Shown: in pieces, positions 1 to 5,423 of the stretch
Layout of the letters: every line of letters starts with the position of its first letter
How positions within the stretch are numbered: the first letter of the stretch is position 1
Origin: Nitrospirota bacterium
GTDB lineage: Bacteria; Nitrospirota; 9FT-COMBO-42-15; HDB-SIOI813
Length of the DNA: 39,116 nt
Reading direction: 5' to 3'
Assembly: GCA_020846775.1 (NCBI GenBank)
Contig: JADLDG010000111.1
Span: forward strand, 1 to 39,116
Notes under the pieces: model-generated
The model's input: only the letters and a program-made list of their open reading frames with translations
Databases searched by the model: none
What the model was told of the DNA's origin: nothing
Program-made: the position numbers and the translations under genes

Positions 1-1258
1 CTCCAGTCAGTGTTAAAGACCATAGCTTCTCCTTGGGTATACTCTGGCATACTATTGAGAGGTCCGCGTCTGCCAGTTGGAGGCGAGCATTCTCTATATA
101 CGCCTCCGCCTCTTGCCTTCCAGTATCTATGGCGGCCTCCTTGGGGGAGTCGAATGGGATGAGATATTCCCCTAATCCATCCGTCCCAAGAAGCTCATCG
201 ATGCCGCCAACTTTGTTCTTCTTGCCTATCAGGCCAACGAGTATTTCGACATTTTTGGAGGCCCGCAACGCTGCGTTTGTAGCATTAGCGGAACCCATTA
301 TTATGTGCGTGTAGTCAGAATAGTAACGTGTCTCGAACAGGTAAACCTTGGCATGCAAGCCAGTAGAGAGTGGCTGGTCCGACTGATTGTCTTCCTCACC
401 ATCTTCGGTTTCCGCAGCTTCGTCCAGATGAAGACACTGTGAAAAAAGGCTGAGTGTGTCCTTTTTTATACTTATTAGGGACTCAGGCCTGGATATTAAT
501 GCGTCTGCCGATTTGGTTTTCTTCACCAAGGATTGAAGGGCCTCGTCAGAGCAGAATGGTGAGATAACAGCCATTTTATTTGACGTTGGCGGTTCCCAGT
601 CAAACTCTTTGGTCCCGGGAAGATAGAAGGCCAATTCATCAAAACCATCGGGAAGCTCCCATTGGGCTCTATGCATATCCTCTGAAAACCTGATTGTCTG
701 CTCGATTCTGGCCTGATCAACGTCTCCTGTGGCAAGCCCGGGAAGTGATTTGAAGAAGTGTGCCAGGGGTTTATTGACCTTTGCTTTGCGTCCTCCGATT
801 GTGCCTTCGAGCTGAAGCGAAAGGTCCCAAGATTGATCAAACGTCATATTTCTGGTTAAGACAACCAGCCTGAGCATTGAGCCGCTTTTGTCCGGGCTGA
901 CAAACCGGATAGCCCACACTTTCGGATGGAAGACCCCTCCGTTTGGAGCCTTAACCTCTACGACCATTCCTTCCAGAAAACCAAAAAGTGGATTTGGCTT
1001 GGCGATCTGGGGCACCTGAATTCGACCTTTTTGAACATATACGGTAATTCTCTTTGAGTACCTCCGTATGGCCTCAAGGATTGACAAGGGATCAGGCTCA
1101 GCCTGCCCCCAGCTTGTTATCAAAGCAAGGTACACGGGAGCTTCAAGCAGCAGGGCTGGGTCCATTGAAAACGTCGTTGCAATGGCCTCGTCGAAAATCA
1201 TCCCCGGTGGAGGAGTGAGGGCTGAAGTGTAAAGGCTTCGGGAGTTTGGATTCAGCAT
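1..1258 (-). CDS. PLD-superfamily (HKD) nuclease-like protein, partial
   Basis: I translated this frame by hand from the ATG at 1258 to the window edge: 419 residues with no stop, so the gene continues to the left. Two HKD-type half motifs are visible: FHPKVW (H111, K113) followed by LTRNMT at 134-139, and LHAKVYLF (H302, K304) followed by MGSANAT at 321-327. Paired H-x-K plus a downstream Asn (GSxN) is the catalytic pattern of phospholipase D superfamily nucleases and phosphodiesterases. The start overlaps the stop of the DUF6361-like gene (ATGCTGA), so the two are translationally coupled. PLD-like proteins in such cassettes often accompany helicases in defence or mobile modules; the next gene lies outside the window, so that role is inference. 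Confidence 0.8.
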   Translation of the reverse strand, partial: MLNPNSRSLYTSALTPPPGMIFDEAIATTFSMDPALLLEAPVYLALITSWGQAEPDPLSILEAIRRYSKRITVYVQKGRIQVPQIAKPNPLFGFLEGMVVEVKAPNGGVFHPKVWAIRFVSPDKSGSMLRLVVLTRNMTFDQSWDLSLQLEGTIGGRKAKVNKPLAHFFKSLPGLATGDVDQARIEQTIRFSEDMHRAQWELPDGFDELAFYLPGTKEFDWEPPTSNKMAVISPFCSDEALQSLVKKTKSADALISRPESLISIKKDTLSLFSQCLHLDEAAETEDGEEDNQSDQPLSTGLHAKVYLFETRYYSDYTHIIMGSANATNAALRASKNVEILVGLIGKKNKVGGIDELLGTDGLGEYLIPFDSPKEAAIDTGRQEAEAYIENARLQLADADLSIVCQSIPKEKLWSLTLTG

Positions 1259-2481
1259 TTCTTCCCCCGGTTCATGCCCTGATAGAGATCATTCAAGAGA
1301 ACCTTTACATTAGGCCAACGGTAAACAAGTTTCCCGACACCGGAATACCCGCCCCATTGCTTAAGTGCCAGTTGATTCCTGAATCGAGAACGTGAACCTT
1401 TGAGTTTCATCTCCCGGTGCTTAACAAGGTTCATTGCCTCTGCGTTCTCAAGCAGGTCTTTGGGGGATTTTCGGGCCAGCTCGATCCACTGCTGCACAAA
1501 GGACCGTGTCTGTGGAGTGATCGTGTGACGACGGTCAATGGTCAACTCCCAAAGGCGGTTTACTAACCAGGCTCTTACTTCATCAAGAGGAAAGTTTTTT
1601 ACCCAATCATCGAAACTGGCCTGATGTTCTGAGACACGGTCATCAAGACCACGAAGTTGAGCAAGCTGGATGTTGTAGGATAACGCCGCCCCGTGCAACG
1701 TCTCGGAGAATAGCCGAGCGTGAGTCAGCAGCTCTTTATGCTCCTGAGAAAAATGACCGTAGTCTGGGTGCTCCCATGGAGCTCTGGTGTCTGCAGGTTC
1801 GCAATGCAGCGATAAAAAGGAAAGTAGGCTTTGTGAACAACTAACCTGAATGCGGTCCCGAATAAATTCGGCTTCTTCTAGGGATAAGGCAAAATCCACT
1901 TTTGCGGGAAAGGTATCCGGGGGCGCAGGTAACCGAGGGTGCCAGCTCAGGACTCCCAATCTCTGATCGTCATTGATGTCATCACCTCGCGCTTTGGCAT
2001 CTTTCTCCAGAGCTTTCAAAGTATTTTGACGCCGATAGATCTCGTCGATTCGCTTGTAGTATTCTTCCTGAGAGTATGGTGTGAGGCGAATACCCCATGC
2101 GCCGAGACCAGCCCAGTAAACAGAACTGGGTAACCGTTTGAGTCGTTTGCCAGCTGTTTTGCCGAAAACGCCTGCCTGGTCATCGGAGTCCAGAAGAGGT
2201 TGAACCAGATCTCTTTCCAGTTTGTCAGCCTGGATCGCAAAGCTATCCATTGAAAGTCGCTTATCTTCCAGTCCCTGATATATCCATGGCGTGAACAGCA
2301 TGTACCGAAGACGGGTCTGGATCGTGCTTGTGCCAGGGAACAATTGATCCGCAAAACTATCTCTCACAGAGCCGAGGCCCAGCTCATCACGGCTTTCCTT
2401 CTCCTGAAAAAGGGAAAGGATGCGAAGAGTGCGCTCTCTCGCCTTTGAATCGTGATCAATCCATGCAAGGACGGACGGCAT
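1252..2481 (-). CDS. DUF6361-like family protein
   Basis: This 409-residue protein has no transmembrane segment or signal peptide. Its N-terminus (MPSVLAWIDHDSKARERTLR, then DELGLGSVRDSFADQLFPGT and RYMLFTPWIYQGL) resembles what I remember of the DUF6361 family; I recognise it by pattern only. Function is unknown. The start is supported by an AAAGGAG Shine-Dalgarno nine bases upstream of the ATG. The stop overlaps the start of the PLD-like gene, so the two form one operon and probably one complex or pathway. The ribosome-binding site begins just past the end of a degenerate IS66 fragment, which suggests the cassette arrived by insertion. A defence role is plausible but not shown. Confidence 0.7.
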   Translation of the reverse strand: MPSVLAWIDHDSKARERTLRILSLFQEKESRDELGLGSVRDSFADQLFPGTSTIQTRLRYMLFTPWIYQGLEDKRLSMDSFAIQADKLERDLVQPLLDSDDQAGVFGKTAGKRLKRLPSSVYWAGLGAWGIRLTPYSQEEYYKRIDEIYRRQNTLKALEKDAKARGDDINDDQRLGVLSWHPRLPAPPDTFPAKVDFALSLEEAEFIRDRIQVSCSQSLLSFLSLHCEPADTRAPWEHPDYGHFSQEHKELLTHARLFSETLHGAALSYNIQLAQLRGLDDRVSEHQASFDDWVKNFPLDEVRAWLVNRLWELTIDRRHTITPQTRSFVQQWIELARKSPKDLLENAEAMNLVKHREMKLKGSRSRFRNQLALKQWGGYSGVGKLVYRWPNVKVLLNDLYQGMNRGKKC

Positions 2482-3017: not shown

Positions 3018-3455
3018 TTATTTTGAACTCAGGCAAAAAAATTGCTGAATGAATGATTCTCTCTCTTCTATCTGATTAGAGGTATATCTTCCATTTCGTG
3101 GAGTCAACCTGACATAGTTATCAATAACCAATGTTGCTCGACCAAACTTATAAGACTTCAAATAGGGAGTAATCTGCTTTAGTAGGTCCAGCGCTTGCCT
3201 GTTTGAGATTGAATATGTAAAACTTGGTGTATGATTATCGCGTGAAGTGCGCTTAGTTGTAATTAGACCTGCACCTACTGTTTCTTGGACGTAATTGAGC
3301 AGATTACGTTCTGTATTACTGATGCTTACAACGAGCTGACGATTATCAGCTCTATGCTTCCTGCTCAGTGAAATAGTTCCTTCTCCATCAATCAGGCCAG
3401 CGATGTAAGCTGCTTCTTCAGATGTAATTTTATTTGTTTGCCTGTATATTGCCAT
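3018..3455 (-). CDS. LAGLIDADG homing endonuclease (single motif)
   Basis: This 145-residue protein has one LAGLIDADG motif, YIAGLIDGEG, at residues 17-26, followed by the family's alternating beta-strand pattern (TISLSRK, QLVVSISN) and a C-terminal ALDLLKQITPYL helix. One motif implies it works as a homodimer on a near-palindromic target. E25 occupies the usual metal-binding acidic position. The gene lies about 90 bases downstream of the 3' end of the intron-containing tmRNA gene, on the same strand, beyond a strong terminator; it is not inside the intron. I see no strong Shine-Dalgarno, and its promoter is unclear. The likely target is the intron-less ssrA T-loop region, which is an inference from position. 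Confidence 0.88.
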   Translation of the reverse strand: MAIYRQTNKITSEEAAYIAGLIDGEGTISLSRKHRADNRQLVVSISNTERNLLNYVQETVGAGLITTKRTSRDNHTPSFTYSISNRQALDLLKQITPYLKSYKFGRATLVIDNYVRLTPRNGRYTSNQIEERESFIQQFFCLSSK

Positions 3456-3497: not shown

Positions 3498-3537
3498 TAT
3501 AAATAAAGCCCCTGACTGAACATATGTCAGGGGCTTT
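3498..3537 (-). terminator. Rho-independent terminator of ssrA
   Basis: A 12-bp perfect stem (AAAGCCCCTGAC with GTCAGGGGCTTT, 3505-3516 and 3526-3537) with a 9-base loop is followed on the minus strand by a T-rich run (TTTATTTATAT). It begins seven bases past the tmRNA CCA end, so it should end tmRNA transcription before the endonuclease gene. Confidence 0.85.
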
Positions 3538-3543
3538 GCAAAT

Positions 3544-4227
3544 TGGTGGAGGCGGCGGGACAGCGTTTCCACTTCTTTCGAAGTGGGCTGGACTATGCCT
3601 TCATCCTGTAACATCCAGGATGCGGGGCGTCTTATCCACTTATAAAGTGGATCCTAGTACCCGCTCATTCAATGAAGACCAGCGGGTCTATGAGTCTCTA
3701 CAGGGCAGCCCTGAGGTTTGCCCCCTTGCTACCCCTCGGCGTTACCATGACATCCAGGTTCCCCTCACCCTGCCCTCTCCCCGAAGGGGAGAGGGCAGGT
3801 GAATACAAAGCCGAAATGCCGTCAGGCTTCACCGATGTGAGCCCCGTTTTCACTCTGCCCTTACGGGCAAAGGCGACCCTTGTTGATCGAACCCGCGTCC
3901 GGAAGCGTTCAGCATCAGGACCTCTACATGCTTAGCCGTGCGAATTAAGGTTTCGCAGTTCATCATGCCCGCAGGCAGGCTCAAAAGAACCGCTATCCCG
4001 CTGTAGTCTCACCCACCCCCTGCAGGAGGAAAAAGGCAGGCCAGCCTGTAATTATGACACCCTAATCCTGCGGCACAGGCAGCCTCAGGCAGGGCGTCGC
4101 AGCCTAATTAGGCAGCGAGAGCGTAATCTGCGTTAGCAGTTGTGTTTTTCCCGTTTTTTTAATGAGGCCTACGGGACCTCAGCATGCAATCCTGGCATCT
4201 TCGTCCCCGTCGAAGCCAGTCGCCCCC
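3544..4227 (-). ncRNA. ssrA: tmRNA (transfer-messenger RNA), interrupted by a group I intron
   Basis: tmRNA rescues stalled ribosomes together with SmpB. The 5' end GGGGGCGACTGGCTTCGACG starts at 4227 and the 3' end CGCCTCCACCA finishes at 3544; the two ends form a 7-bp acceptor stem with one G-U pair, discriminator A and encoded CCA. The tag frame runs GGG (4152-4150) to TAA (4110-4108) and encodes GKNTTANADYALAA, with the canonical YALAA end. Upstream of the T-arm the typical CTAAGCATGTAGA and GGACGCGGGTTCGAT elements are present. Exon 1 is 4227-3886 and exon 2 is 3560-3544; joined they give GCGGG-TTCGATT-CCCGC, a perfect T-arm, and a mature length of 359 nt. The intron occupies 3885-3561. 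smpB lies about 0.75 kb upstream on the same strand. Confidence 0.95.
3561..3885 (-). ncRNA. Group I intron in the ssrA T-loop
   Basis: This is a 325-nt self-splicing-type intron without an ORF. The 5' exon ends in U (3886). P1 forms between exon CGAU and the internal guide GUCG (3877-3874), with the U-G wobble exactly at the splice site. The last intron base is G (3561), as required for omega-G. The 3' P7 element is GGCATAGTCC (3599-3590); its AGTC (3594-3591) can pair with GACT (3696-3693) in a GTAGAGACTCATAG element. P9 is a perfect 7-bp stem CCACTTC/GAAGTGG with a GAAA tetraloop (3586-3569). Further hairpins are ATCCACTT/AAGTGGAT (3652-3634) and CATCCTG/CAGGATG (3622-3602). A peripheral GC-rich hairpin near 3799-3764 resembles a dispersed genomic repeat. 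Exact subgroup and P3-P6 pairing were not worked out. Confidence 0.9.
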
Positions 4228-4249
4228 AAGCTTCGGACGTAATAAATGT

Positions 4250-4337
4250 CTTTCTGCGGCGTTGGACTCCTCAGGGAATCCTCAACGTACTTTTCAAGTA
4301 CGCCTCCGGTTCCCTTCGTCGTCCGCCTTGCAGAAAG
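4250..4337 (-). repeat. 88-nt bulged palindrome / possible structured RNA upstream of ssrA
   Basis: On the minus strand the ends CTTTCTGC and GCAGAAAG pair perfectly, followed inward by GGCG/CGCC, GAC/GTC, GGGAA/TTCCC and CGTACTT/AAGTACG closing a GAA loop. The pairs are separated by nearly symmetric purine-rich internal loops (GACGAA opposite TGAGGA, CCGGAGG opposite TTGAGGA). It lies 23 bases upstream of the tmRNA 5' end. It could be a dispersed miniature element or a structured leader; no other copy is in the window. Confidence 0.6.
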
Positions 4338-4393
4338 CCATTTCTTACGCCCTAGTTAAGCTATGTTATCAAAGAACAAGGTTTCTGTTTAAT

Positions 4394-4870
4394 TTAATGC
4401 TGACCGTGCGGCTCATAAGGCTCGTAGAACTCATTGTCTATCGCTGCCCTTATATCTTTTATACTGTATCCTTTGTTATTCAGCTCTTTGGCACGTATAG
4501 CCTCTAACATGCATATATCACATCCGGAGCCATGGCCATCTGTAAAGCATGTCCTGAGACTCTTGTGATCATGGTCTTCTGCGCAGTAACAATAGCAATA
4601 GAGTTGATCGAGTACCTCAGGTATTTCGGCCGCTGCGGCGTATGCCTCCCGGACCTGCCCGGTAAAATAAACAGTCGGCACGATTGCCCCCATCTCTCCT
4701 CCCCGCCAATCCGGGTTGTTTTTATACTCCATATATACTTCAGGCTGACTACTGTCGCGGGAAGTGGAATGCGTATCCTTGTCCGGATTTTCCCTCCCCT
4801 GTTTAGTACAACCTGCAGAAATTGAAACAACTGCTGCTACTAAAATAATGATTAAGATATTCCTGTCCAT
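4394..4870 (-). CDS. PCYCGC-like cysteine-rich lipoprotein
   Basis: This 158-residue protein has an N-terminal hydrophobic segment ending in a lipobox (SISAGC, Cys21), so it should be a membrane-anchored lipoprotein. After a polar linker it has VLDQLYCYCYC (Cys 92, 94, 96), then CFTDGHGSGCDICMLEA (Cys 108, 117, 120), and ends in a short histidine-containing tail. The arrangement matches the PCYCGC-motif lipoprotein family, but the motif is YCYCYC here. The clustered Cys and nearby His (AEDHDHK) suggest metal binding, which is inference. The start has an AAGGG Shine-Dalgarno nine bases upstream. It sits between ssrA and smpB on the same strand; nothing in the sequence links it to trans-translation. 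Confidence 0.75.
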   Translation of the reverse strand: MDRNILIIILVAAVVSISAGCTKQGRENPDKDTHSTSRDSSQPEVYMEYKNNPDWRGGEMGAIVPTVYFTGQVREAYAAAAEIPEVLDQLYCYCYCAEDHDHKSLRTCFTDGHGSGCDICMLEAIRAKELNNKGYSIKDIRAAIDNEFYEPYEPHGQH

Positions 4871-4913
4871 TCGAAAATACCCTTATTAACCCATCCCCAC
4901 CCCTTCGATTTCT

Positions 4914-4970: not shown

Positions 4971-5423
4971 TTATTTCTGCCTTTCCCTGAATGCCTGGGC
5001 TACCTCCCTGCCGGCATCTCTCTTCTTTATATCCTCTCTCTTGTCATAAAGCTTCTTCCCTTTTGCAACGCCTATTTCAACTTTTGCAATCCCCCTCTTA
5101 AAATAAACCTTGAGCGGTACTAAATTATACCCCCTCTGCTGTATCTTCCCGAAAATCGTGGAAATCTCTTTTCTGTGAAGAAGGAGCTTGCGTCTCCTCC
5201 CCTGCTCATGGTTGTTAATATTTCCAGCCTTATATGGACTTATATTGCAGTAGAGGAACACCTCTCCCCCCTCTACCCTTGCATGACCATCTTTCAGGCT
5301 CACCCCTCCATCACGCATTGACTTGATCTCAGTTCCCAGCAGCTGTATACCCGCCTCATAAGTGTCTTCAATAAAATAATCATGAAACGCCTTCTTATTT
5401 GATGCAACTAAACTTTCACTCAC
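4971..5423 (-). CDS. smpB: SsrA-binding protein SmpB
   Basis: SmpB binds the tRNA-like domain of tmRNA and delivers it to stalled ribosomes. The 150-residue length is typical. Recognisable parts are the [18 protein letters not shown] start, [19 protein letters not shown], the oligonucleotide-binding barrel through [24 protein letters not shown], and the basic C-terminal tail ([19 protein letters not shown]) that enters the decoding centre. The start is GTG, with AAAGGG about ten bases upstream. The tmRNA gene itself lies downstream on the same strand, so both partners are in one locus. Confidence 0.97.

What the first reader, a model, noticed from the sequence alone, without database searches (positions are those of the whole stretch)
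3544..4227. Group I intron splits the T-loop of the tmRNA gene
Both tmRNA ends, the tag ORF and the tRNA-like elements are intact, but 325 nt lie between TTCGAT and T of the T-loop. Precise removal restores GCGGG-TTCGATT-CCCGC. The splice-site U-G pair in P1 (CGAU/GUCG), omega-G, a GGCATAGTCC P7 strand and a P9 hairpin with a GAAA tetraloop are all present. Group I introns in bacterial ssrA have been reported (clostridia), so this would be a rare new lineage case. Trans-translation then depends on splicing.
Basis: partly seen in the sequence, partly recalled or inferred. Interest (0 to 1): 0.92.

Follow-up and report, generated by a model that had tools for sequence, protein, structure and literature searches.

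The report
Intron-split tmRNA with neighbouring homing nuclease
The gene for the ribosome-rescue RNA (tmRNA) in this Nitrospirota bacterium is interrupted by a self-splicing intron, as was claimed, but the new part is a separate DNA-cutting 'homing' enzyme gene just behind it: the same pair occurs in dozens of bacteria and is probably how these intron-only elements still spread.

Summary
On the minus strand, ssrA (4227..3544) carries a 325-nt group I intron (3885..3561) in the T-loop. In silico removal gives a 359-nt tmRNA with tag ANADYALAA. It is the genome's only tmRNA. Covariation over 38 related introns supports P1-P9 (99.1% of pair cells paired; 0/500 shuffles). This type is known: 883 intron-form tmRNAs in 21 phyla, mainly at this loop position (PMC11915505).

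Relatives sit in the same place in Gamma- and Betaproteobacteria, Nitrospirota and a Chloroflexota MAG. In 369 Gammaproteobacteria drawn without regard to it, 22 have the intron; 18 of those carry the gene or a remnant directly downstream, against 2 of 347 others, both broken copies behind an intronless ssrA (Fisher p about 1e-24). Same-strand downstream copies: 36 intact with intron, 0 intact without.

Best reading: collaborative homing. The free-standing nuclease cuts empty ssrA at the T-arm; the intron protects its own copy and rides along. This may explain why few tmRNA introns carry an endonuclease (4.1%). Splicing and cutting are untested. Distant phage relatives also lie at tmRNA genes of every form.

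The parts
3544..4227 (-). ssrA (tmRNA) gene including the intron; exon 1 = 4227..3886, exon 2 = 3560..3544
   Evidence: RF00023 140.4 bits; spliced form called by ARAGORN as a 359-nt tmRNA; only tmRNA in the genome
3561..3885 (-). group I intron, 325 nt, inserted between nt 6 and 7 of the T-loop (TTCGAT^T; position 7 in the numbering of PMC11915505)
   Evidence: RF00028 34 bits, E=1.6e-6; covariation of 38 introns; -1U and omega-G
4108..4137 (-). tag reading frame, ANADYALAA*
   Evidence: ARAGORN on the spliced sequence, positions 91-120
3886..3889 (-). 5' strand of P1 (CGAU in the 5' exon), pairs with GUCG at 3877..3874; U.G at the splice site
   Evidence: paired in 38/38 sequences
3591..3594 (-). 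3' strand of P7 (AGUC of AUAGUCC), pairs with GACU at 3696..3693
   Evidence: invariant in 38/38
3569..3586 (-). P9 hairpin with GAAA loop
   Evidence: 5 of its 7 pairs covary on both sides
3764..3803 (-). REP-like palindromic hairpin inserted in the P5 loop of the intron
   Evidence: fold -34.6 kcal/mol for 3806..3761, z -5.1; near-identical copies dispersed in many genomes of the phylum; absent from the related introns aligned
3505..3537 (-). intrinsic-terminator-like hairpin between the ssrA 3' end and the endonuclease gene
   Evidence: 12-bp stem, -21.4 kcal/mol, z -6.1, T-rich tail; hairpins by eye at this place in nearly all related loci
3018..3455 (-). free-standing LAGLIDADG homing endonuclease gene, 145 aa, one motif (AGLIDGEGT), outside the intron
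   Evidence: PF14528 and PF00961; I-CreI/I-MsoI-like predicted fold; same position in dozens of genomes
4971..5423 (-). smpB, protein partner of tmRNA, same strand upstream
   Evidence: PF01668, E=1.5e-57

Best explanation
ssrA is interrupted in its T-loop by a group I intron that must splice before tmRNA can fold and be charged. The gene just behind ssrA encodes a single-motif (I-CreI-like, presumably homodimeric) LAGLIDADG endonuclease whose target is inferred to be the uninterrupted, pseudo-palindromic T-arm of ssrA (GCGGGTTCGATTCCCGC). When donor and empty ssrA meet in one cell, the nuclease cuts the empty gene and repair copies in the intron, and often the 3' exon, terminator and nuclease gene. 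The intron destroys the site in its own gene and so protects the host from the neighbouring nuclease: collaborative homing of two separate genes, here in a bacterial chromosome. Shown: intron anatomy, the conserved arrangement, its statistical association, loss of intact nuclease where the intron is absent, purifying selection on the nuclease. Inferred: splicing, cleavage, target site, homing.
For: Intron. Gene order ssrA-intron-3' exon-terminator-HEG with 52-192 nt to the HEG in most loci. Independent sample: R1 finds 22 intron ssrA in 369 Gammaproteobacteria; 18/22 have the HEG or a remnant downstream; HEG search of the same genomes gives 17 of those plus 2 others, both broken HEGs behind intronless ssrA (Fisher p 5e-23 for 17/22 against 2/347, 8e-25 with the remnant). 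Nitrospirota, 296 genomes: intact HEG in 3 of 6 intron ssrA and 0 of the other 290. Intact/intron 36, broken/intron 13, broken/intronless 3, intact/intronless 0 for same-strand downstream HEGs. HEG dN/dS 0.13-0.23. Fold: I-CreI, TM up to 0.75, E 1e-8. Copies of the ssrA 3' exon just beyond the HEG in L053, L069, L081, L115 and phage L180. Phage relatives of about 31-43% identity nearly all lie at tmRNA genes or ssrA introns.
Against: No cleavage, splicing or mobility assay exists here. Parcubacteria L074 and L088 carry an intact HEG convergent with an uninterrupted ssrA, although its T-arm differs symmetrically (GGATTCGATTTCC). Four of 22 gammaproteobacterial and two Nitrospirota intron ssrA have no HEG downstream. 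HEG and intron distances correlate only weakly (Mantel r 0.20; partial 0.15, p 0.015), and intron subtype changes at least 6 times on the weakly supported HEG tree, so the two do not travel as one strictly linked unit.
Confidence: 0.77

Rival explanations
1. The downstream LAGLIDADG protein is mainly a maturase that helps the ssrA intron splice; adjacency reflects that need.
For: Some LAGLIDADG proteins are maturases; a maturase is among the PDB sequence hits (2ab5).
Against: Introns persist with no HEG (4/22 and 2 Nitrospirota) and with a broken HEG (13 loci). The motif acid (AGLIDGEG) is invariant in all 31 HEGs aligned, as expected for a nuclease.
Confidence: 0.08
2. The HEG is an ordinary free-standing element homing into the region behind ssrA, and the intron is an unrelated passenger that persists only because it protects the site.
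For: Intron and HEG trees and distances agree poorly; phage relatives also sit beside standard and permuted tmRNA genes without a group I intron.
Against: The association with the intron is very strong in a sample drawn without regard to the HEG, and intact same-strand HEGs were not seen with intronless ssrA. This differs from the best explanation only in whether the intron gains mobility.
Confidence: 0.13
3. The insertion is a genomic-island or assembly artefact, not an intron.
For: ssrA is a common island integration site (PMC11915505).
Against: P1-P9 covariation, same junction in dozens of independent genomes, spliced product is a clean tmRNA, one copy in the genome.
Confidence: 0.01

Closest known systems
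Group I introns in the tmRNA T-loop (tmRNA intron form; PMC11915505)
   Same: Same gene, same loop position 7 (TTCGAT^T), -1U and omega-G, P7.1 region present.
   Different: That survey counts HEGs only inside introns (36 of 883, 4.1%); its main text does not contain 'downstream' or 'free-standing'. Here the HEG lies outside, behind the ssrA terminator.
Collaborative homing: F-CphI and the psbA intron of cyanophage S-PM2 (PMC6083498; reviewed in PMC3984707)
   Same: A free-standing endonuclease next to an intron-bearing gene, with the intron expected to block self-cleavage.
   Different: Phage protein-coding gene and Endo VII-type nuclease there, with cleavage shown; bacterial RNA gene, LAGLIDADG nuclease and many lineages here, cleavage not shown. 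The 2014 review names two phage systems only.
I-CreI / I-MsoI (single-motif LAGLIDADG homodimers)
   Same: Predicted fold, length, single motif.
   Different: Those are intron-encoded in organellar rRNA genes (own knowledge); about 20% identity; E replaces the second acid of the motif.

Membership tests
Group I intron | Conserved core P3-P9 with P7/P3 pseudoknot | tested here: met
   covariation count; RF00028 E=1.6e-6 but below the gathering score
Group I intron | -1U paired with G in P1 and omega-G | tested here: met
Group I intron | Guanosine-dependent self-splicing | not testable with these tools
   needs RNA experiment
tmRNA intron form | Insertion in the TpsiC loop restoring a standard tmRNA | tested here: met
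LAGLIDADG homing endonuclease | LAGLIDADG motif and fold | tested here: met
   PF14528, PF00961; I-CreI fold
LAGLIDADG homing endonuclease | Site-specific DNA cleavage | not testable with these tools
   biochemistry needed; dN/dS 0.13-0.23 shows constraint only
Collaborative homing | Endonuclease gene is free-standing and adjacent to the intron-bearing gene | tested here: met
Collaborative homing | Endonuclease target spans the intron insertion site and is blocked by the intron | tested here: inconclusive
   indirect only: intact same-strand HEG always with the intron, 36 to 0; Parcubacteria exceptions; cleavage not testable here
Collaborative homing | Intron moves by the free-standing nuclease | not testable with these tools
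   mobility assay needed

The most novel reading that the evidence does not exclude
There is a LAGLIDADG subfamily dedicated to tmRNA genes of bacteria and phages. It sits beside or within standard, intron-split and permuted ssrA, and drives T-arm-directed homing in all of them, so that ssrA architecture is partly shaped by one nuclease family.
Probability: 0.5. Interest if true: 0.82.

Novelty: new variant of a known kind. Interest (0 to 1): 0.7.

Why it matters
The tmRNA intron survey left open why only 4% of tmRNA introns carry an endonuclease, against 54% of archaeal rRNA introns. In the gammaproteobacterial sample the endonuclease is present in most cases but lies outside the intron, behind the terminator, where a search of introns would not look. 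It also gives a chromosomal, many-species set for collaborative homing, so far described from two phage systems, with natural intermediates (intron without HEG, HEG remnant without intron, HEG inside the intron, displaced unit) in which steps of intron mobility can be tested. The target is an RNA of ribosome rescue, so fitness costs of splicing and cutting can be measured.

Tried and rejected
Island or assembly artefact: rejected by covariation and recurrence. Permuted tmRNA reading: the weak RF04321 hit (25 bits) is below threshold and the gene is collinear. Essential maturase: unlikely, introns persist without the HEG or with a broken one. Strict co-inheritance of intron and HEG as one unit: not supported. 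Plasmid carriage: no HEG match in 72,556 plasmids. My first P7 register was one column off and was corrected. Model R1 was built from introns with a downstream HEG, so it may under-count other ssrA introns; Bacillota were not sampled.

Full report
OBSERVATION. On the minus strand of the window an ssrA gene runs from 4227 to 3544. Rfam's tmRNA model matches 4220..3884 with 140 bits and then loses the T-stem; ARAGORN does not find the gene. Removing 3885..3561 gives a 359-nt RNA that ARAGORN calls a tmRNA with tag ANADYALAA*. The genome (2.73 Mb, 99.6% complete) has no other tmRNA above the cut-off. smpB lies upstream at 5423..4971.

THE INSERT IS A GROUP I INTRON. RF00028 matches 3895..3569 with E=1.6e-6, below its gathering score. 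Related introns were taken from 37 other loci and aligned (A2). A hand-checked structure with P1, P2, P3, P4, P5, P6, P7, P7.1, P7.2, P9 and the T-stem has 99.1% of cells paired, 32 of 58 pairs changed on both sides and no shuffle of 500 as high; sliding the partners gives 37-45%. -1U, the U.G pair and omega-G are present throughout. P7 never varies, so covariation says nothing about it. The window's intron also holds a REP-like palindrome in the P5 loop; near-identical copies are scattered through other genomes of the phylum.

KNOWN KIND. PMC11915505 reports 883 intron-form tmRNAs in 21 phyla, most at loop position 7, the position found here; 36 of them (4.1%) hold an endonuclease gene inside the intron. 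Its supplements could not be read, so whether Nitrospirota are among the 21 phyla is unknown to me.

Behind the ssrA terminator-like hairpin (3537..3505) lies a 145-aa LAGLIDADG ORF, 3455..3018, same strand. The same-genus genome G001 has the same order with a 69%-identical protein, and G172 of another family of the phylum has a 56%-identical one. G009 has an intronless ssrA with only a stump of the gene. A scan of one genome per species (GTDB r220) found 54 loci. For nearly all loci of 43% identity or more the tmRNA gene lies directly upstream on the same strand and is about 600-800 nt long, that is intron-bearing. Hosts are Gammaproteobacteria (Thiocapsa, Methylophaga, Thioalkalivibrio and many MAGs), Betaproteobacteria, Nitrospirota and one Chloroflexota MAG. 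More distant relatives (L091, L093-L100) show no ssrA nearby by pattern search.

ASSOCIATION TEST. That set was found through the nuclease, so I drew genomes without regard to it. A covariance model of the intron's 3' part plus 3' exon (R1) finds 22 intron-form ssrA in 369 Gammaproteobacteria. Eighteen have the nuclease gene or a remnant directly downstream; L118, L125, L126 and L129 have none. A profile of 31 nucleases (A4) on the same 369 genomes finds 19 carriers: 17 of the 22, and two others. In those two, G378 and G312, a broken copy sits directly behind an intronless ssrA. Fisher p is 5e-23, or 8e-25 with the remnant counted. In 296 Nitrospirota the intron model finds six clear intron ssrA (G000, G001, G006, G172, G242, G278), one displaced fragment (G252) and two weak matches; intact nucleases occur in three of the six and nowhere else. 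G006's contig ends about 146 nt after ssrA, so its absence there is not informative.

INTACT NUCLEASE NEEDS AN INTERRUPTED SITE. Among distinct same-strand downstream copies: 36 intact with intron, 13 broken with intron, 3 broken with intronless ssrA, 0 intact with intronless ssrA. This is what a nuclease aimed at the empty T-arm predicts. Closely related pairs give dN/dS 0.13-0.23. The AlphaFold model (pLDDT 91) matches I-CreI (TM up to 0.75); PDB sequence search gives I-MsoI and I-CreI. Those enzymes are homodimers on pseudo-palindromic DNA (established knowledge), and the T-arm GCGGGTTCGATTCCCGC is one (inference).

FOOTPRINTS OF MOVEMENT. In L053, L069, L081 and L115 a further copy of the ssrA 3' exon lies right behind the nuclease gene; in phage locus L180 a decayed copy followed by a terminator-like hairpin lies beyond it. 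In G252 an intronless ssrA is followed about 2.7 kb later by intron 3' part, 3' exon, terminator and nuclease stump, with other genes between; L092 shows a similar displaced piece. These suggest that intron, 3' exon, terminator and nuclease can move together, leaving the old 3' exon behind. Distance comparisons show only a weak intron-nuclease link once tmRNA distance is removed (partial Mantel r 0.15, p 0.015), and intron subtype changes at least six times on the poorly supported nuclease tree, so intron and nuclease are also reshuffled.

EXCEPTIONS AND WIDER FAMILY. Elusimicrobia L085 and L086 have the nuclease inside the intron. Parcubacteria L074 and L088 have an intact nuclease convergent with an uninterrupted ssrA whose T-arm differs symmetrically. 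In viral contigs the best 23 relatives (31-43% identity, several near-duplicates) lie at tmRNA genes or introns in 22 cases: antisense inside an ssrA intron (L159, L164, L167), convergent behind intron-bearing ssrA (L175, L176, L180), next to standard tmRNA (L169, L170, L174), or beside or within permuted tmRNA (L161-L163, L166, L173, L178, L179, L181); L177 has only a group I intron match and L172 only tRNA genes. Twelve weaker relatives (L182 and beyond) show none. L160 and L165 were judged by model R1 alone.

INTERPRETATION. Collaborative homing (F-CphI and the psbA intron: PMC6083498; review PMC3984707) fits best: a free-standing nuclease and an ORF-less intron share one site, and the intron shields the site. 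My searches of the library found no paper that reports this for ssrA. Library coverage is partial: most subscription papers are missing, probably among them the original reports on tmRNA introns, so priority cannot be claimed.

WHAT IS NOT SHOWN. Splicing, cleavage, the target site and homing are inferred. The strength of the claim outside Gammaproteobacteria and Nitrospirota is unknown; Bacillota, which hold most tmRNA introns, were not sampled.

Noticed in passing
window 3764..3803: REP-like palindrome (CCTGCCCTCTCCCCTTCGGGGAGAGGGCAGG) inside the intron's P5 loop; near-identical copies in many genomes of the phylum, few in the window's own genome.
   Followed up: partly
L247 (G252) 146..496 and 3246 onward: Intronless ssrA followed about 2.7 kb later by a displaced intron 3' fragment, 3' exon, terminator and HEG stump; two protein genes lie between (one looks like a radical-SAM protein, by eye).
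   Followed up: partly
L074, L088 (about 4001-4890): Parcubacterial HEG convergent with an uninterrupted ssrA whose T-arm carries symmetric changes; possible resistance of the target.
   Followed up: partly
L178, L179, L181: Phage LAGLIDADG genes inside the span of a permuted tmRNA match; L161-L163, L166 and L173 beside one.
   Followed up: no
L159 2860-3940: Phage ssrA with group I intron carrying an antisense LAGLIDADG gene, next to tRNA genes.
   Followed up: partly
L170, L171: Phage contigs with tmRNA, bacterial class A RNase P RNA and a long tRNA array.
   Followed up: no
L180 1788..2202: GOLLD RNA near an intron-bearing phage ssrA.
   Followed up: no
L053, L081 after the HEG: Intact second copy of GGGTTCGATTCCCGCCGCCTCCACCA followed by similar sequence in both genomes, like an attachment-site repeat of an integrated element.
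   Followed up: no
window 1252..2481 minus and 4394..4870 minus: DUF6361 protein downstream of the HEG, and a PCYCGC-motif protein between ssrA and smpB.
   Followed up: no
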